Shown here: one piece after another, positions 93-35,784 of the stretch
Position numbering within the stretch: the stretch's first letter is position 1
Layout of the letters: every line of letters begins with the position of its first letter
From: a virus
IMG/VR virus record: IMGVR_UViG_3300044825_001864
Span: 1 to 36,775 of that record
DNA: 36,775 bases
Strand: one strand, 5' to 3'
The notes under the pieces: model-generated
The model's input: only the letters and a program-made list of their open reading frames with translations
What the model was told of the DNA's origin: nothing
Database searches by the model: none
Program-made: the position numbers and the translations under genes

Positions 93-162
93 GAGACGGC
101 AGGCGCTTGACAGTCAGGCGGCAGGTGGCGCATGGTGTGTGAACACCAACGGGAGCCCCGCC

Positions 163-861
163 ATGGACACGCCCCAGCCTCTGAAGCCCTTCGTCGCCTA
201 CTTCCGCGTCTCGACCGACAAGCAGGGCGAGAGCGGCCTCGGCCTCGAGGCGCAGCGCGCGACCGTCGCCCGCCACCACCCGGCCGAGGGCTGGGTGCAG
301 GTGGGCGAATTTGTCGAGGTTGAGAGCGGCAAGCGGGGCGACCGGCCGCAGCTGACGCTGGCGCTGGCGCGGGCCAAGTCGATGCGCGCCACCCTGGTGG
401 TGGCCAAGCTCGATCGGCTGAGCCGCAGCCTGTCCTTCGTGGCCAACCTGATGGAGGCGAAGGTCGCGTTTTGCGCCTGCGACGTGCCGCAGCTGAACGA
501 CCCCGGCCAGTCGCGTTTCCTGCTCGGCCTGATGGCCAACATCGCGGAGTACGAGGCGAGCATGATCTCGGCCCGCACCAAGGCGGCGCTGGCGGTGAAG
601 AAGGCGCAGGGCGTCGAGCTCGGCAGCCCGACGCCGGAGCGCGGCGGGGCGGCGCGCGGGGCGCAGCTGGCGGCCGAGCGCGAGGCGCGGGATGCGGTGC
701 TGCTGCCGGTGGTGCGCGACATCCTGGCCGGCGGCGTGACCTCGGTGCGCGGCGTGGCGGCCGAGCTCAACCGGCGCGGCGTGAAGCCCCTGCGGGGCGA
801 CGCCTGGGGCGTCGGCGCGGTGCATACGCTGCTGCTGCGGGCGCGGTCGGCGGGAGGCTGA
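163..861 (+). CDS. Small serine recombinase (resolvase/invertase family)
   Basis: A 232-residue site-specific recombinase. The N-terminal resolvase fold shows the catalytic YFRVSTDKQ block, with nucleophile Ser17 flanked by Arg15, and the KLDRLSR block (residues 82-88) with the conserved active-site arginines. A helical linker (AEYEASMISARTKAAL) leads to a short C-terminal region with a Recombinase/HTH-like segment (VRGVAAELNRRGV). It is far shorter than large serine integrases of roughly 450-600 residues, so resolvase, invertase or short integrase activity is more likely. ATG 163 is chosen over an in-frame GTG at 139 because GGGAG sits 8 bases upstream. No tyrosine integrase is visible, so this is the only candidate for integration or excision. 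First gene of the left plus-strand operon. Confidence 0.85.
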   Translation: MDTPQPLKPFVAYFRVSTDKQGESGLGLEAQRATVARHHPAEGWVQVGEFVEVESGKRGDRPQLTLALARAKSMRATLVVAKLDRLSRSLSFVANLMEAKVAFCACDVPQLNDPGQSRFLLGLMANIAEYEASMISARTKAALAVKKAQGVELGSPTPERGGAARGAQLAAEREARDAVLLPVVRDILAGGVTSVRGVAAELNRRGVKPLRGDAWGVGAVHTLLLRARSAGG

Positions 862-1629: not shown

Positions 1630-2604
1630 ATGGTCGGAAAGATCACGCCCGACACGCACATCAGCTGCTCGCGGCTGCCGGCGGTCCTGGGCCTGTCGCC
1701 CTGGTCGACGCCGAACGATGAGCTGGCCAAGAGCCTCGACGCCCGGCTGGGCCGGGCCCGGCCGCGCGACGCGGCAGGGGAGGGGGCCGAATGGGGCAAC
1801 CTGCTGGAGCCGATCGTGCTGCGCGAGATGGCCCGCCGCCTCGGCCTGGTCCGCGTGCAGACCGGCATCACCAAGCCGGTGCAGGCCGGCTGCATGGTCA
1901 CCGACGGCGTGAGCGCACGCTACGGCATGCTCTACGGCAGCCTGGATGGGCGCGGCACGGCGCCGGAGGTGTGGGTGGCCGACACCAACCCCGAGCTCGG
2001 CATCTACTGCCCAGCCGGCCCCGTGAAGCTGTATGGCCGCGGCGTGCTGGAGGCGAAGACAACCCGCGCCGAGCCGGCCGAGGAGCCGCCACCGTACCGT
2101 GGCCCGGTGCAGGTGCAGGGGCTGATGCTCTGCACCGGCTACCAATGGGCGGCCGTGGGTGTGCTGCACCAGGGGCAGGAGCTTCGGATCTATCTCTACC
2201 AGTCGAGCGACGAGTGGCACGCGAAAATCCGCGACGCGGTGGTGGAGTTCGAGACGCGCCTGCAGGGGCCGGAATGGTATCCGCCGACCAGCGCGGCCGA
2301 CGCCCGCCGGACTTGGCAGATGCAGGACGAGGACGCGCCGCCCATCGCGCTGCCGGCAGAGGCCGCCGACCTGGCGCGCATGATCCTCGACGGCAAGCGG
2401 GCCCGGAAGGCGGTCGACGAGATGATCGACCAGGCCGAGGCCGGCCTAATGTCGATGCTCGGCAACCATGAGGTCGGTCATGTCGAGGGCATCACCGTCC
2501 GGTGGCCGTCGAAGCGGTTCAAGGCGCAGCCGGCCAAGACGGTGCCGGCCACGCAGGAGCGGGTGACCCGCGGCAGCCTGTACATATCGGAGCTGGTGGC
2601 ATGA
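1630..2604 (+). CDS. YqaJ / lambda-type viral exonuclease
   Basis: A 324-residue PD-(D/E)XK nuclease of the YqaJ recombinase family, which degrades one strand of duplex ends to feed phage single-strand annealing recombination. Visible motifs are the N-terminal SRLPAVLGLSPW block typical of the family, EWGNLLEPIVL with Glu60, GSLDG with Asp106, the VLEAKTT block with Glu141 and Lys143, and the following QVQGLMLCTG helix. Preceded by a G-rich ribosome binding site. It overlaps the next gene by four bases (ATGA). No RecT- or Beta-type annealing partner was recognised in the window. Confidence 0.85.
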   Translation: MVGKITPDTHISCSRLPAVLGLSPWSTPNDELAKSLDARLGRARPRDAAGEGAEWGNLLEPIVLREMARRLGLVRVQTGITKPVQAGCMVTDGVSARYGMLYGSLDGRGTAPEVWVADTNPELGIYCPAGPVKLYGRGVLEAKTTRAEPAEEPPPYRGPVQVQGLMLCTGYQWAAVGVLHQGQELRIYLYQSSDEWHAKIRDAVVEFETRLQGPEWYPPTSAADARRTWQMQDEDAPPIALPAEAADLARMILDGKRARKAVDEMIDQAEAGLMSMLGNHEVGHVEGITVRWPSKRFKAQPAKTVPATQERVTRGSLYISELVA

Positions 2605-29735: not shown

Positions 29736-29960
29736 TCAGCTCTCGCGCTCTGGGGCTGTCGACCTGGCGGTGGCGCGCTCTGCCTCTTGCCTCTCGAGCT
29801 CGCGGTCGATCGCGTCGCGGATCCAGGCGGCCATGCGACGTGCGCCGACCAGCTGGTCGATGCGACGCAGCTGGTCGTCTGTCAGGCGGACCTTGGTCGG
29901 CTTCACGCCGAGGGGTGGGCGTCCCATGCGGTGCGCCTTAGCTGTGCTGAGCGAGTCCAT
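29736..29960 (-). CDS. Ribbon-helix-helix DNA-binding protein
   Basis: 74 residues from ATG 29960, which has CGGAG at good distance; an internal ATG at 29927 gives a 63-residue form. The core GRPPLGVKPTKVRLTDDQLR, then RIDQLVGARRMAAWIRDAID, is an Arc/CopG-type fold: a beta strand around 22-28 for DNA contact and two helices for dimerisation. A charged tail follows. It lies directly beside the paired-repeat array, making it the nearest candidate to bind it. Possibly a repressor of late genes including terS. Confidence 0.7.
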   Translation of the reverse strand: MDSLSTAKAHRMGRPPLGVKPTKVRLTDDQLRRIDQLVGARRMAAWIRDAIDRELERQEAERATARSTAPERES

Positions 29961-30055
29961 GGAAGCTCCGAGTAAAGGGCGCCTTTTATTGACGCAGTAA
30001 GAGGGGACGTTTACGCCTCACAGGGCCGACGCTGGTCGGGTGTGAGGAGGGCGTG

Positions 30056-30307
30056 ATGGCGCGATGGTGTGGGCCACCGGGTGATGAGCGTGCCGAGGTG
30101 ACGCGGCGGCTGGAGGGGCTGCTGGCGTACCTGACCAGCTTGGAGCGCTGGGTCGCTGTGTTGCGGGAGATCCCGCTCGACGACGCGGCGGCGCGGGCGC
30201 TGGCGGCCAGGCAGCAGGCCGAGGCGCGGGACGCCTGCTTCCTGCTGCGCCAGGCCATCGCGCGGCTGGAGGAGGAGCGCGACGCGGGGCCGGGGGCTGG
30301 CCAGTAG
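30056..30307 (+). CDS. Small helical hypothetical protein
   Basis: 83 residues from ATG 30056 (GTG 30053 also possible), preceded by GAGGAGG. Helical: EVTRRLEGLLAYLTSLERWV and AARQQAEARDACFLLRQAIARLEEERD suggest a short helical hairpin. Divergent from the RHH gene with a 95-base spacer. Not recognised. Confidence 0.55.
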   Translation: MARWCGPPGDERAEVTRRLEGLLAYLTSLERWVAVLREIPLDDAAARALAARQQAEARDACFLLRQAIARLEEERDAGPGAGQ

Positions 30308-30346
30308 GCGGCGACGCCTGCCAGGCGCCTGCCGACGCGCCGCACG

Positions 30347-30367
30347 ATATACGCAGGGCGCGCATAT
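30347..30367. promoter_or_regulatory. Operator candidate O1
   Basis: 21-bp dyad ATATACGC-N5-GCGCATAT, seven of eight arm positions symmetric. It lies immediately upstream of the -35 box of the promoter at 30375. It is an inverted near-copy of O2 (17 of 21 positions). Confidence 0.65.
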
Positions 30368-30374
30368 TTTTCGC

Positions 30375-30403
30375 TTGCACAATATGCGCGGAGTGCGTAT
30401 ATA
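30375..30403 (+). promoter_or_regulatory. Sigma-70-type promoter
   Basis: TTGCAC (30375-30380), a 17-base spacer and TATATA (30398-30403) read toward the 30450 gene. One dyad abuts the -35 region and another covers the spacer and -10. The clearest promoter in the window, and clearly built for repression. Confidence 0.65.
30382..30402. promoter_or_regulatory. Operator candidate O2
   Basis: 21-bp dyad ATATGCGC-N5-GCGTATAT covering the promoter spacer and -10 box. Its centre is 35 bases from that of O1. The inner arms of O1 and O2 also form the nested pair GCGCATATT / AATATGCGC. Confidence 0.65.
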
Positions 30404-30449
30404 CCCGCTCAGCCGAGGCAATCGCCCGGCGGATCGAGGAGATAGCCCG

Positions 30450-30677
30450 GTGCCTTACACCATCGCCCAAGCCGCCACCCTGATCGCGGACTTCGACCCT
30501 GCGCTGGCGCGCCACTACGTCGCCAGCCCCTTTCACCGCCGCACCATTGCCGAGGTCTTCGAGCAGCAGATCCTGCCGATCGTTGGCTTCGAGCTGGCCG
30601 CCCGCATCGCGGCGGTGCTGCTGATGGCGCATGAGGTCGACATGGCCCGCCTCTCGAACGACAGCGTGGAGGGCTGA
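30450..30677 (+). CDS. Small hypothetical protein, first gene behind the operator promoter
   Basis: 75 residues from GTG 30450, supported by GAGGAGAT seven bases upstream; an ATG further upstream would begin inside the promoter. Helical: YTIAQAATLIADFDPALARH, then ILPIVGFELAARIAAVLLMA. No domain recognised. Three bases separate it from the next gene, so the group is one operon. Confidence 0.6.
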   Translation: MPYTIAQAATLIADFDPALARHYVASPFHRRTIAEVFEQQILPIVGFELAARIAAVLLMAHEVDMARLSNDSVEG

Positions 30678-30680
30678 GCC

Positions 30681-31127
30681 ATGACCCAGTACAAGCTCGC
30701 CAACCGCGCGAAGATCACCCTGTCGGTCGACGACGGCCGCCTGGTCATGCAGGGCCCGAGCGGCCAGCACAGCGTGCTGGTGCGCTACGCCGTCGAGGGG
30801 CATGACGACCTCGATCGCGCTTGCGTCCACCTGGCCGGCTTCCTGCACACCAACGGCGCCACCCACGCCGAGGTGTCCCGGATCCTCGCGCGCTTCATCA
30901 ACGACCCGAGCCTGGCCAAGCTCGACATCCGCGACGGCACGCGGATCAAGGCGACGCGGATCGGCGTCGAGAGCGTGCTGCGCTCGCTGGCCATGCACGG
31001 CGGCCGGGTCGTGGGCGTTGCCACCAGCGCGGGGCCCGGCTTGCCGCGCTCTGGCTACACCCGCGGCTGCTACGTCGGCCAGCTGGTCGCCTGGCACGTC
31101 GGCGTGCCCGCCCCGGTGTTGATGTGA
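30681..31127 (+). CDS. Hypothetical protein, second gene of the operator-controlled operon
   Basis: 148 residues, mixed alpha/beta: YKLANRAKITLSVDDGRLVM as opening strands, HDDLDRACVHLAGFLHTNGA as helix, then IRDGTRIKATRIGVESVLRS. Not recognised. GGAGGG precedes the ATG. Size and isolation fit an early accessory or anti-defence protein, but nothing in the sequence proves it. Confidence 0.6.
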   Translation: MTQYKLANRAKITLSVDDGRLVMQGPSGQHSVLVRYAVEGHDDLDRACVHLAGFLHTNGATHAEVSRILARFINDPSLAKLDIRDGTRIKATRIGVESVLRSLAMHGGRVVGVATSAGPGLPRSGYTRGCYVGQLVAWHVGVPAPVLM

Positions 31128-31145
31128 AGGGGGAGGGCTGACACC

Positions 31146-31370
31146 ATGACCACCACCTTCCGCATTGTCGACACCAAGCTCAACAAGGCGGGCACGCCGT
31201 TCCGCCTGATGGAGCGCAATGGCCGGTTTGCAGTTTTCAAACTGTCGAAGAACTATTGCGGGCAGGTCGCTGGCGGAATCGCCGCCGCTTGGCGGTACGT
31301 CGTGCTGGACGTGACAGAAGCCGAGGCTAGGCAGGTGTTCGCCCGTCGCATCAAAGGAACGGCCAAATGA
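31146..31370 (+). CDS. Small basic hypothetical protein
   Basis: 74 residues with a beta-rich look: TTFRIVDTKLNKAGTPFRLM, NGRFAVFKLSKNYCG, WRYVVLDVTEAEARQVFARR. GGGGGAGGG precedes the ATG. Overlaps the following HTH gene by four bases (ATGA). Not recognised. Confidence 0.6.
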   Translation: MTTTFRIVDTKLNKAGTPFRLMERNGRFAVFKLSKNYCGQVAGGIAAAWRYVVLDVTEAEARQVFARRIKGTAK

Positions 31371-31576
31371 CCCCCACCCGCCTCCGCGAATGCCTCGCCT
31401 TGCTGCGCTGGTCGCAGCGGGGCCTTGCTGATGCGCTCGGCCGGCCCGAGGGCACGGTGCGGCAATGGGCCCGCGGTTCCGTTCGCATCCCTGACGACGT
31501 CGCGTCCTGGCTTGAGAAGGCAGGCCGCTGGCACGGGAAGAACCCGCCGCCAGCGCGCCAGCAGCCGGAGGCGTAG
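31367..31576 (+). CDS. XRE/Cro-type helix-turn-helix protein
   Basis: 69 residues. RLRECLALLRWSQRGLADAL followed by GRPEGTVRQWARGSVRIPDD is a compact lambda-repressor-type HTH: helix, SQRGLADALG turn, recognition helix VRQWARG. The tail is Pro/Gln-rich. As the last gene of a short operon whose promoter carries two dyads, it is the obvious candidate autorepressor, like Aca proteins in anti-CRISPR operons. Confidence 0.7.
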   Translation: MTPTRLRECLALLRWSQRGLADALGRPEGTVRQWARGSVRIPDDVASWLEKAGRWHGKNPPPARQQPEA

Positions 31577-31600
31577 CGCCGCCTGCGGCCGGGGCTGCCA

Positions 31601-31915
31601 TCACGCCACCCACAGCCCCGCCTTCTGCAGCATCAGCCGGCCCAGCTTGGTGACGGTCAGCTCGACCTCGCGCCGGTCGGTCTTGCTGGTCGTCCGCGTG
31701 ATCAGCCCGAGCTCGACCAGCTTGTCGTTGGCCCGCGTGACGACGGGCTTCGCCAGGTCGAGGGTCGCCGCCAGCTGCCGCACGCTGTTGCCGGGGTGCG
31801 CGGCGATCATCAGCAGCACGGCGATCTGCCGGCAGGTCATGTTGGCGTCGATCGCCGCCATCTCGGTGAACGGCGTGGCGGCGGCCGGCAGGCTCAGGGT
31901 TTCGGTGGTCTGCAT
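31601..31915 (-). CDS. MarR-like winged-helix regulator
   Basis: 104 residues from ATG 31915, with CAGGAG eight bases upstream. The winged helix is clear: QIAVLLMIAAHPGNSVRQLA, ATLDLAKPVVTRANDKLVEL (recognition helix), GLITRTTSKTDRREVELTVT (wing). It lacks much of the flanking dimerisation helices of full MarR proteins (about 140 residues). It ends the minus-strand replication block and converges with the HTH operon 24 bases away. Confidence 0.7.
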   Translation of the reverse strand: MQTTETLSLPAAATPFTEMAAIDANMTCRQIAVLLMIAAHPGNSVRQLAATLDLAKPVVTRANDKLVELGLITRTTSKTDRREVELTVTKLGRLMLQKAGLWVA

Positions 31916-31941
31916 GGTTCGCTCCTGTGTGAGGCTCGGGG

Positions 31942-32505
31942 TCAAAACGGGATCTCGTCGTCGATCGGCGCGGCCGTGACGGGGCGCGGCCGCAGCTGCA
32001 CCACCTCGGCGCCGGGGAATGCTTGCTTGATGTCGCCCACGGCATGCGCCGGTGAGACGCGGTGCAGCACCCGGCCGATCTCCTCGACCGTCCAGACCTG
32101 CACGTTGCGGCGGCCGTCGCGGACGCAGGCGCGCTGATGGGCGTGCTGTTCGGGCAGGGTCTGCACCACCGCCAGGATCATGCCGTCGGCCATGGGTGCC
32201 TCCCAGGCGGTGACCTCGAGCGGCTTGTGGCCGGCGGCTTCGGCCTCGCGGATCAGGGCGGCGTAGCCGCGGATCGTGGCGGCGCAGGCCTGTTCGATGC
32301 GGGCCTCATCACCTGACTGGATGGCCTCGTCGAGCTTGTCCTGCTGCCGCTGCCACCTGGCGCGCTGCTCGGGGCTGATCAGCAGCGGCAGGCGGTCGAC
32401 GCCCCAGATGCGCTCGGCCTCGGCGGCGACGCGGTCGAGCTCCTGCACCCAGGGTGCGTTAGCCGGCCGGGCGGCGCCGTAGGCGATGGGCATGCGTTTG
32501 CGCAT
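31942..32505 (-). CDS. Hypothetical replication-region protein with SSB-type C-terminal tip
   Basis: 187 residues. The N-terminal part is helical (APWVQELDRVAAEAERIWGV, PEQRARWQRQQDKLDEAIQS), the middle has beta segments (PMADGMILAVVQTLPEQ, VQVWTVEEIGRVLHRV). It ends in PIDDEIPF, residues 182-187 matching the acidic tip with terminal Phe by which bacterial SSB recruits repair and replication proteins. No OB fold is evident. GGGGAGG precedes the ATG. Could be an SSB-mimicking recruiter or inhibitor. Confidence 0.65.
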   Translation of the reverse strand: MRKRMPIAYGAARPANAPWVQELDRVAAEAERIWGVDRLPLLISPEQRARWQRQQDKLDEAIQSGDEARIEQACAATIRGYAALIREAEAAGHKPLEVTAWEAPMADGMILAVVQTLPEQHAHQRACVRDGRRNVQVWTVEEIGRVLHRVSPAHAVGDIKQAFPGAEVVQLRPRPVTAAPIDDEIPF

Positions 32506-33613: not shown

Positions 33614-33835
33614 TCAGCGCTTCCTCGGATGGGTCAGGTATCGGAACAGCAGGGTCATGGCGCGGTCGTCGTCGCGGCGCTGGGCGGTGGTCGCGATGCC
33701 CGCCTCGACCATGCGGCGGGCGTCCGCGATGGTGACCGGCGCGCCGGGCAGCTCGAGCCAGGTGTCCCAGGGGCTGCGGTTGGGGTAGCGCCGGGCGATC
33801 GCCACCCAGCCGCTGGGCTTTTCGTTGTCGCTCAT
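33614..33835 (-). CDS. Small hypothetical protein behind the primase
   Basis: 73 residues from ATG 33835, which overlaps the primase stop by four bases; a GTG at 33844 would add three. Contains a Trp-rich WVAIARRYPNRSPWDTWLEL and a basic C-terminus. Not recognised; coupled to the primase by overlap. Confidence 0.55.
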   Translation of the reverse strand: MSDNEKPSGWVAIARRYPNRSPWDTWLELPGAPVTIADARRMVEAGIATTAQRRDDDRAMTLLFRYLTHPRKR

Positions 33836-35784
33836 GTCGTCCACCAGAAAGCGCGGGCCGGATCGCCGCCCGTCGGGTCGAGGTTGAGGCAGGCCACCAG
33901 GCTGCGCTCCTTCTCCTGGAGTGCTTTGAGCGCGCGGCTGAAGGTCTGGGCGGCCCGGCCTTCAAGGTGCGGGTAGACCGCCGCGCGCCAGACGCTCTCG
34001 CGCACCACCCGCCGCACGGTGGGCGGGGCGTTGCTGGAGGCCGGCGGATCTTCGGCGGCGTCGCTGGCGAGCAGCAGCTTCAGCTCGTCGAGGACCAGCT
34101 TCTGCTGCTTGCCGAGGCCCTTCGTGCGGTCGGCTGCCTTGGGCGCCGGCGCGTCGGCCTCGATGGCGACGCAGCTGGTGACGATCGTGCCGCGCCGGTC
34201 GTAGCCGAGATCGACCACCGCCAGGTTGAAGCGCCACTCGCCGCTGCAGTCGAGCTCGCGCTGCTTGGTCGGCTTGGCCAGCGCCGGGCTGTCGCGATCG
34301 GGCCGCGTCACCTCGATCTCGGTGTCGGTGGCGGCGCGCAGCAGGGAGTGACCGCGGGCGCCGCGCGCCTGGTCCTTGCCGGAGTGGTGGATGATCATGA
34401 CATGCGCGCCGGTGGCGGCGCGGATCAGGTCGATGTGCCGCACCAGCGCGCCCATGTCCTCGCTGGCGTTCTCGTTGCCACCGGCCAGAGCCCGACTCAG
34501 CGTGTCGATCACGATCAGGCGCACCGGCACGTTCAGCTGCGCGGCGGCGGCCTTGATGGTGGCGACCAGCGCCTGCGCGTCGGCGTCGCTGCTCAGCAGG
34601 TCGATCGGGGTGGTGGCGATGGCCAGCGGCAGGCTGGCGCCGCGCAGATCATGGTAGTGCAGCCAGGCGACGACGCGGTTGCGGATGCCGGCGGTGCCTT
34701 CGAGCGCCAGGTAGATGACGCCGCCCTGCTCCACCTCCCGCCCGCGCCAGGTTTTCCCCGCCGCGACATGCAGCGCCAGGTCGACGGCAAAGAACGTCTT
34801 GCCGGTGTTGCTGTCGCCGTAGGTGACGGACATGCCGCCGTCGGTCAGCACGCCCTCGACGAAGTCATGCGCCTCGAGGGCGGGGCGGATGTCGACCAGC
34901 CAGGTCAGCGGGATCGGCGTGCTGACCGGCTGGGTCTGGATGGCGCGCGCGGCCTGCTGCAGCTCGGCCAGGGTGCCGCCGGCGTCGAGCCAGTCGGAGA
35001 CGTCGCCCTTCGGGGGCAGGTTGGGCAGGCGCAGGATGTGGGCCGAGCTGGCGACGCCGGTCAGCGCCGCCGCGACGCGGGCGACATGGCGGGCGCCGGC
35101 CTCGTCATTGTCCTGCAGGATGACGCAGCGGCGGCCGGCCAGGTGCGGGGTGAGGGGGGCGTGCCAGTTGCCGGCGCCGCCATGGTTGCAGGTCGCGACC
35201 AGGCCGAGCGCGGCCAGCCGATCGGCGTCTTTCTCGCCCTCGCAGATCCAGATGGTGGCGTCGGCCGGCGCGGCGAGCAGCTCGGGCAGGCGGTAGGGCA
35301 GGGGCGTCTCGGTGCCCAGGCCCCAGGCGGTGCCGCGCCGGATCCGAAAAGTCTTGCCGGCGTGCGGATCCTCGAGGCGCACCACCTCGTAGCGGATGAC
35401 GCCGTCGGCGTCGGCGTAGGGGTAGGTGGTGACCTGGCGCAGGCTGACCGGCGGCGGGGCGGCGGGCGCCTCGCGGGTCACGATGCCGGCGACGCGGCGC
35501 AGCGCTTCCTTGGCGGTGACGTGCAGCGCGTGGCTGACCAGCGTGAAGCCGTCGCCGGCCAGCGGCTCGCCGCCGCCCTGGCCGCAGATGAACGAGCCCT
35601 CGCCGTCCTTATCGTCGAAGCGGAACCGATCGAGGCCGCCGCAGCCGGGGCAGGGGCCGTGCTTGCGCGACGTGTCCGGCACGCTGATGCCCAAGGACGG
35701 CAGGATCTCGGCCCGCCAGCGGCCGCGCGCGGCGGTGCGCGCTTCCTCGAAGGAAGGCAGGCCGGAGGGGGTGATGCCCAGCAT
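33832..35784 (-). CDS. Primase-helicase (zinc ribbon, Toprim, RecA-like ATPase)
   Basis: 650 residues. An N-terminal zinc ribbon (about 42-70) with HGPCPGCGG and FICGQG: Cys45, Cys48 and Cys67 are present but the usual fourth Cys is Gly70; His42 could substitute. Toprim-like segment IWICEGEKDADRLAALG near 179 and VILQDNDEAG near 219. RecA/RepA-type helicase with Walker A GDSNTGKT near 323, Walker B RLIVIDTLSRAL near 422 and HVMIIHHSGKD near 460. C-terminal basic winged-helix-like region. It would open and prime the phage origin for host polymerase. The upstream spacer carries a hairpin and no strong ribosome binding site. Confidence 0.85.
   Translation of the reverse strand: MLGITPSGLPSFEEARTAARGRWRAEILPSLGISVPDTSRKHGPCPGCGGLDRFRFDDKDGEGSFICGQGGGEPLAGDGFTLVSHALHVTAKEALRRVAGIVTREAPAAPPPVSLRQVTTYPYADADGVIRYEVVRLEDPHAGKTFRIRRGTAWGLGTETPLPYRLPELLAAPADATIWICEGEKDADRLAALGLVATCNHGGAGNWHAPLTPHLAGRRCVILQDNDEAGARHVARVAAALTGVASSAHILRLPNLPPKGDVSDWLDAGGTLAELQQAARAIQTQPVSTPIPLTWLVDIRPALEAHDFVEGVLTDGGMSVTYGDSNTGKTFFAVDLALHVAAGKTWRGREVEQGGVIYLALEGTAGIRNRVVAWLHYHDLRGASLPLAIATTPIDLLSSDADAQALVATIKAAAAQLNVPVRLIVIDTLSRALAGGNENASEDMGALVRHIDLIRAATGAHVMIIHHSGKDQARGARGHSLLRAATDTEIEVTRPDRDSPALAKPTKQRELDCSGEWRFNLAVVDLGYDRRGTIVTSCVAIEADAPAPKAADRTKGLGKQQKLVLDELKLLLASDAAEDPPASSNAPPTVRRVVRESVWRAAVYPHLEGRAAQTFSRALKALQEKERSLVACLNLDPTGGDPARAFWWTT

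What the first reader, a model, noticed from the sequence alone, without database searches (positions are those of the whole stretch)
30347..31576. Acr-aca-like operon: dyad-controlled promoter, small unknown genes, terminal HTH gene
Seen: a sigma-70 promoter (TTGCAC-17-TATATA) with two inverted near-copies of one 21-bp dyad, one at the -35 edge and one over the -10; then three unrecognised genes (75, 148, 74 residues) and a 69-residue XRE-type protein with tight spacing. Known: anti-CRISPR and other anti-defence operons often end in an HTH autorepressor (Aca) that binds promoter dyads. Inference: the unknown genes may be early anti-defence or host-takeover proteins.
Basis: partly seen in the sequence, partly recalled or inferred. 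Interest (0 to 1): 0.68.

Follow-up and report, generated by a model that had tools for sequence, protein, structure and literature searches.

The report
Phage cassette with conserved switch leader
A bacterial virus carries three unknown small genes behind a switch made of a repressor gene, two DNA sites and a folded start of the messenger RNA; the same switch sits in front of dozens of unrelated small genes in other phages, which makes it a possible bait for finding genes that phages use against bacterial defences.

Summary
Observation confirmed. The promoter (TTGCAC-17-TATATA), two 21-bp dyads (30347-30367, 30382-30402), three small ORFs (75/148/74 aa) and the 69-aa HTH gene are there. Comparison shows more. 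The HTH belongs to a family in uncultivated phages, prophages and plasmids of Acetobacteraceae and other alphaproteobacteria (80 non-redundant loci examined). For the recognition helix EGTVRQWARG, 47 of 47 leader copies have an exact CGC-N5-GCG dyad at one fixed place in the promoter; other helix classes keep the core and change the outer bases. Between promoter and first gene lies a conserved ~45-nt leader (30410-30455): a 5'-terminal hairpin with a bulged A and compensatory changes, then Shine-Dalgarno and start codon in a second possible hairpin. It is found in 59 of 80 HTH loci, before unrelated genes (94 cargo proteins, 69 clusters), up to four times per locus. I read it as an autorepressed accessory cassette that works like acr-aca operons. 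It is not a shown Aca: no known anti-CRISPR was found and two of the three window proteins have no relatives at all. RNA binding by the HTH, as in Aca2, is a testable guess. Novelty: new variant of a known kind.

The parts
30347..30367 (.). Operator O1, dyad ATATACGC-N5-GCGCATAT upstream of the -35
   Evidence: Sequence. A CGC-N5-GCG dyad upstream of the -35 is exact in 24 and near-exact (5 of 6 or better) in 35 of 47 leader copies of the same helix class.
30375..30403 (+). Core promoter TTGCAC-17-TATATA
   Evidence: Sequence; same position of -35, dyad and -10 in relatives.
30382..30402 (.). Operator O2, dyad ATATGCGC-N5-GCGTATAT in the spacer and over the -10
   Evidence: 47/47 leader copies of this helix class carry an exact CGC-N5-GCG here; about 0.06 expected per 28-nt window.
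30410..30455 (+). Conserved leader from about the predicted transcription start to just past the start codon
   Evidence: Covariance model R1, 53.1 bits, E 1e-10, the only hit in the window at E<=1 (the window is one of the sequences the model was built from).
30412..30430 (+). Hairpin H1: GCCG-(A)-GGC-loop-GCC-CGGC with bulged A
   Evidence: Fold; compensatory changes at three pairs over 54 sequences.
30431..30454 (+). Possible hairpin H2 holding the Shine-Dalgarno (GAGGAG 30436-30441) and the GTG start (30450)
   Evidence: Fold; motif conserved but without compensatory changes, so only suggested.
30450..30677 (+). Cargo gene 1, 75 aa, unknown
   Evidence: ORF; no significant family, no PDB match.
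30681..31127 (+). Cargo gene 2, 148 aa, unknown
   Evidence: ORF; no relative in viral contigs or 200 Acetobacteraceae genomes; single-sequence fold pLDDT 56.
31146..31370 (+). Cargo gene 3, 74 aa, unknown
   Evidence: ORF; weak match to phrog_24586 of unknown function, E 3.7e-4.
31367..31576 (+). HTH regulator gene, 69 aa, overlaps cargo gene 3 by 4 nt
   Evidence: phrog_4779 transcriptional regulator E 8.8e-9; relatives; model pLDDT 92.6.

Best explanation
A mobile, autorepressed accessory cassette of a phage. RNA polymerase transcribes three small cargo genes and the HTH gene from one promoter. The HTH protein, as a dimer, binds O2 (and O1), covers the -10 and -35 region and shuts the promoter off once enough has been made (inferred from site conservation and from the change of site with recognition helix; binding not shown). 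The mRNA begins at or next to hairpin H1 and holds the Shine-Dalgarno and start codon just behind it; the leader is kept in front of unrelated genes, so it acts on expression of whatever follows, most likely on mRNA stability or translation start (inferred). Cargo is exchanged between phages while promoter, leader and HTH are kept. The most likely role of the cargo is early host take-over or anti-defence, by analogy only.
For: Site: 13 of 14 exact dyads in 294 kb lie upstream of the HTH gene; 47/47 at one fixed place in the promoter. Site changes with the recognition helix: EGTVRQWARG with TATnCGC, DDRLVRRWASG and relatives with GTCCGC, ETRVRRWA with GACGC. Leader: 59 of 80 HTH loci, 70 copies; of five host genomes, four have a leader hit and the strongest hit of each is the HTH locus. 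In the pattern scan of all viral contigs, 29 contigs with leader, operator core and start codon carry the HTH; the three genuine ones without it end within 700 nt downstream. Cargo: 94 proteins in 69 clusters, 55 singletons. HTH start overlaps the previous stop by 4 nt in 40 of 80 loci. H1: 24 cells changed on both sides against 6.1 +/- 2.0 in shuffles; in dyad-anchored leaders chosen without the leader pattern, 14 of 27 have it against 1.2% of shuffles.
Against: No binding, expression or start-site data. 21 of 80 HTH loci have no detected leader, so the leader is not essential to the HTH; some are cut by contig ends. In the genome survey the leader was found in 2 of 200 genomes against 22 with the HTH, partly because that scan used strict filters. 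Leader sequences in the alignment were picked by a pattern that fixes part of the stem, so invariance of those columns is not evidence. H2 has no compensatory changes. No cargo function is shown.
Confidence: 0.7

Rival explanations
1. The HTH protein also binds the leader RNA (hairpins H1/H2) and blocks translation, so the cassette is controlled at both DNA and RNA level, as described for Aca2.
For: Leader found only with this HTH family wherever the contig is long enough; H1 fits RNA better than DNA: a bulged A on one arm only and loops of 4-6 nt; Shine-Dalgarno and start codon lie in H2; an Aca2-RNA complex has been solved (PMC11239489) and Aca2 is among the best structural matches of the HTH model.
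Against: Co-occurrence is also expected from a jointly inherited promoter; no RNA-binding data; the resemblance to Aca2 is that of a common small HTH fold, and the 69-aa protein lacks the Aca2 C-terminal part; H2 not supported by covariation.
Confidence: 0.3
2. The leader is a plain 5'-terminal stabilising hairpin plus a strong ribosome site, with no dedicated partner; its spread is hitch-hiking with the promoter cassette.
For: H1 sits right at the predicted 5' end in both operator classes although the operator-to-leader distance differs; such hairpins are known to protect mRNA (own knowledge).
Against: Sequence of the bulge and inner stem is kept more strictly than stability needs, though partly by how sequences were picked.
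Confidence: 0.4
3. The HTH is a lysogeny (Cro/CI-like) regulator and the small genes are ordinary early lambda-like genes.
For: Phage repressor families match distantly.
Against: Last gene of an operon of unrelated small genes in most loci, present also on plasmids, and up to four promoter-leader cassettes per locus.
Confidence: 0.1
4. A toxin-antitoxin module, with the HTH as autorepressing antitoxin (HigA/MqsA-like fold).
For: HigA2 and MqsA are among the structural matches; Aca and antitoxins may be related (PMC9410906).
Against: No toxin family in 69 cargo representatives; cargo far too variable for a fixed toxin partner.
Confidence: 0.08

Closest known systems
acr-aca operons (Aca1-10; PMC9410906)
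   Same: Small HTH gene (60-70 aa) last in an operon after small unknown genes; inverted repeat inside the core promoter, sometimes a second one; structural matches include Aca7, Aca2, Aca1, Aca10.
   Different: No known anti-CRISPR linked; no significant sequence match to the Aca families with solved structures (Aca7 E 0.037); adds a conserved structured leader and repeated promoter-leader cassettes.
Start-associated sequences (SAS/ESAS) of cluster K mycobacteriophages (PMC3203893, PMC11373665)
   Same: Conserved sequence directly before start codons of unrelated small genes, about half with an upstream promoter and inverted repeats.
   Different: Different sequences and hosts; the partner of SAS/ESAS is unknown, here a linked candidate regulator exists, and the leader hairpin shows compensatory changes.
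Early-gene regulatory sequence and Aca8 of archaeal rudiviruses (PMC11065993)
   Same: One conserved regulatory sequence before many unrelated early genes plus an HTH regulator thought to switch them off; used to find anti-defence genes.
   Different: Archaeal promoters, no leader hairpin mentioned in the passages read; some cargo there was tested as anti-defence.
Aca2 with RNA (PMC11239489)
   Same: Small HTH regulator of an acr operon that binds RNA as well (its function in translation control from own knowledge).
   Different: Aca2 is about 125 aa with its own dimerisation part; RNA binding untested here.

Membership tests
Aca (anti-CRISPR-associated) regulators | Gene lies next to a validated anti-CRISPR gene | tested here: inconclusive
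   No recognised Acr among 69 cargo representatives in Pfam, NCBIfam, PHROGs; these libraries hold few Acrs.
Aca (anti-CRISPR-associated) regulators | Significant sequence match to a known Aca family | tested here: inconclusive
   Against Aca proteins with solved structures only: Aca7 E 0.037, Aca1 E 0.75; other Aca families were not searchable here.
Aca (anti-CRISPR-associated) regulators | Inverted repeat within the core promoter of the operon | tested here: met
   47/47 leader copies of this helix class.
Aca (anti-CRISPR-associated) regulators | HTH gene downstream in the same operon | tested here: met
   4-nt overlap with the previous gene in 40 of 80 loci, 14 more within 13 nt.
Aca (anti-CRISPR-associated) regulators | Represses its own promoter | not testable with these tools
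   Needs a reporter assay.
Aca2-type DNA- and RNA-binding regulator | Binds a hairpin in its own mRNA leader | not testable with these tools
   Only a conserved hairpin is shown.
SAS/ESAS start-associated sequences | Matches GGGATAGGAGCCC within two changes | not tested
   By eye the leader differs (CGAGGA...CCCGATG); no scan was run.
Rfam families | Match to a described RNA family | tested here: not met
   None up to E 1 in 29900-32000.

The most novel reading that the evidence does not exclude
The 69-aa HTH is a further kind of small regulator that controls phage counter-defence genes at two levels, binding a DNA dyad and a bulged hairpin at the 5' end of the mRNA, and its leader marks a large, portable pool of anti-defence genes in alphaproteobacterial phages.
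Probability: 0.2. Interest if true: 0.82.

Novelty: new variant of a known kind. Interest (0 to 1): 0.62.

Why it matters
If right, one regulator family and one leader give a sequence bait for small counter-defence or take-over genes in phages of Acetobacteraceae and related bacteria. Cluster K mycobacteriophages have had a similar unexplained start-associated sequence since 2011 (PMC3203893); here a candidate regulator is linked to the element, so the question of what reads such leaders becomes testable.

Tried and rejected
Nucleotide search of phage records: no match; protein search of the HTH in phage records: none. Relatives of the 148-aa protein: none in viral contigs or 200 genomes (no positive control in the genome set). 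The 75- and 74-aa proteins were not searched for in contigs or genomes. PDB search with the cargo: none, except designed ankyrin repeats for the 74-aa protein, judged chance. Single-sequence fold of the 148-aa protein: too poor to search. RNAalifold on the leader alignment gave a different, weak structure pairing the 3' arm of H1 with the Shine-Dalgarno; kept as a possible alternative fold, not claimed. Genome searches with a wrong handle failed. A first test of palindromes in the EGTVRQWARG class gave GC-rich chance words. Three contigs counted by script as leader without HTH (L127, L159, L199) are one coding sequence matched by chance. A PDB match to a designed coiled coil (8qae) is compositional. 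The paper on Aca2 RNA binding is not held.

Full report
OBSERVATION. The window is a 36,775-base virus record. The island is on the + strand between leftward genes: a MarR-like gene (31601-31915), a gene with primase-helicase matches (33832-35784) and a RusA-like resolvase match on one side, and a ribbon-helix-helix-like gene, a terminase small subunit and structural genes on the other.

HTH FAMILY. The 69-aa protein has relatives in viral contigs (31 loci with the single sequence; 80 listed with the alignment, partly the same contigs), in genomes of Falsiroseomonas, Roseomonas, Gluconacetobacter, Methylobacterium, Xanthobacter and others, in 22 of 200 genomes of the family of Falsiroseomonas and in 31 plasmid records. 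After removal of near-copies I worked with 80 loci.

OPERATOR. TATnCGC-N5-GCGnATA occurs 14 times in 294 kb, 13 upstream of the HTH gene. Across helix classes the core CGC-N5-GCG stays and the outer bases change with the recognition helix. In the EGTVRQWARG class 47 of 47 leader copies have an exact core at one place, mostly 24-26 nt upstream of the leader, against 0.06 expected per window. The right half-site runs into the -10. This is where a repressor would block polymerase, and where the repeat lies in acr-aca promoters (PMC9410906).

LEADER. Downstream of the promoter a ~45-nt sequence is conserved although the genes behind it are not: CCGAGGC-loop-GCCCGG, spacer, CGAGGA, spacer, CCCG-start codon. 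With the start expected about 7 nt after the -10, H1 is at the 5' end of the mRNA in both operator classes (inferred). H1 carries compensatory changes: columns 4-23 C-G 47 / G-C 7 with none unpaired, 11-18 C-G 41 / G-C 8 with none unpaired, 3-24 with four pair types but 13 unpaired; 24 cells changed on both sides against 6.1 +/- 2.0. Cells count sequences, not events, and shuffles do not keep relatedness. The sequences were selected by a pattern that fixes part of the stem, but not these three pairs. A check that does not use the pattern (leaders taken by position from the dyad) finds the bulged hairpin in 14 of 27 against 1.2% of mononucleotide shuffles; in several of the misses the search started at the upstream dyad. 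Energies alone are modest (z -0.9 to -2.5). H2 folds in the examples but has no covariation, so it is only a suggestion.

SPECIFICITY. A covariance model finds the leader in 59 of 80 HTH loci, 70 copies, six loci with two to four. Of five host genomes four have a hit and the best hit of each is at the HTH locus. A pattern scan of all viral contigs found 81 stretches; those with operator core and start codon carry the HTH in 29 contigs, and the three genuine exceptions (L181, L187, L194) end within 700 nt downstream. In L181 the operator looks different while the leader is kept.

CARGO. 94 proteins fall in 69 clusters, 55 of them single. Pfam gives DUF932 and LPD29 as the only strong families; the other Pfam hits are weak (LPD29 confirmed singly in L083, and DUF932 in the neighbour gene of L044). 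One cluster of 13 is a small coiled-coil protein with a membrane-like C-terminus directly before the HTH (topology by eye). In Methylobacterium an ArdC-type anti-restriction gene lies about 5 kb from the HTH (L041). This is thin support for an anti-defence role.

STRUCTURE. The HTH model is confident (pLDDT 92.6). Foldseek ranks Aca7 first, without significance (E 0.086); VIA-align lists Aca2 (Z 9.1, rmsd 3.2, 69 aligned), Aca10 (8.3, 1.8, 54), Aca1 (7.9, 2.4, 58) and Aca7 (7.1, 4.0, 63), mixed with HigA2 and MqsA. Such Z values are common for small helical domains, so they agree with, but do not prove, an Aca relation.

VERDICT. Shown by sequence: conserved operator, conserved leader with H1, linkage to the HTH, variable cargo. 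Inferred: autorepression, RNA-level role, exchange of cargo. By analogy only: anti-defence. What it works like: acr-aca operons, archaeal Aca8 regulons and mycobacteriophage SAS/ESAS. What it is a member of: not settled.

Noticed in passing
window 30053-30307 (+): A further small rightward ORF (84 aa from 30053, 69 aa from 30098) just before O1, with coding-like composition and no family; it may be another accessory gene with its own promoter.
   Followed up: partly
window 31601-31915 (-) and 29736-29960 (-): The island is flanked by a MarR-like and a ribbon-helix-helix-like gene on the other strand, possible further regulators.
   Followed up: no
window 139-861 (+), 1630-2604 (+): A recombinase (invertase/integrase families) and a RecE-like exonuclease on the + strand at the left end of an otherwise mostly leftward genome.
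   Followed up: no
L013 4684-5001 and 12 relatives: A small coiled-coil, probably membrane-anchored protein recurs directly before the HTH gene in 13 loci; possible superinfection-exclusion or partner protein.
   Followed up: partly
L041 2177-3211 and 4988-7267; L246: In Methylobacterium the HTH lies near an ArdC anti-restriction gene and a ParB-like gene (L041); the plasmid L246 has annotated zincin-like peptidase, ParB and strawberry-notch genes nearby.
   Followed up: partly
L008; genome handle G164 contig C4: Several copies of the HTH gene in one locus: a second copy about 1.75 kb upstream in L008, and four within about 15 kb in G164.
   Followed up: no
L181 1-800 (-): Leader kept with a different dyad (ATCGCG-GAT-CGCGAT), and a similar GAGGAGAAACCCGATG start context at the second gene; contig ends before any HTH gene.
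   Followed up: partly
alignment A2, columns 19-35: The 3' arm of H1 can also pair with the Shine-Dalgarno, so the leader could switch between two folds.
   Followed up: no
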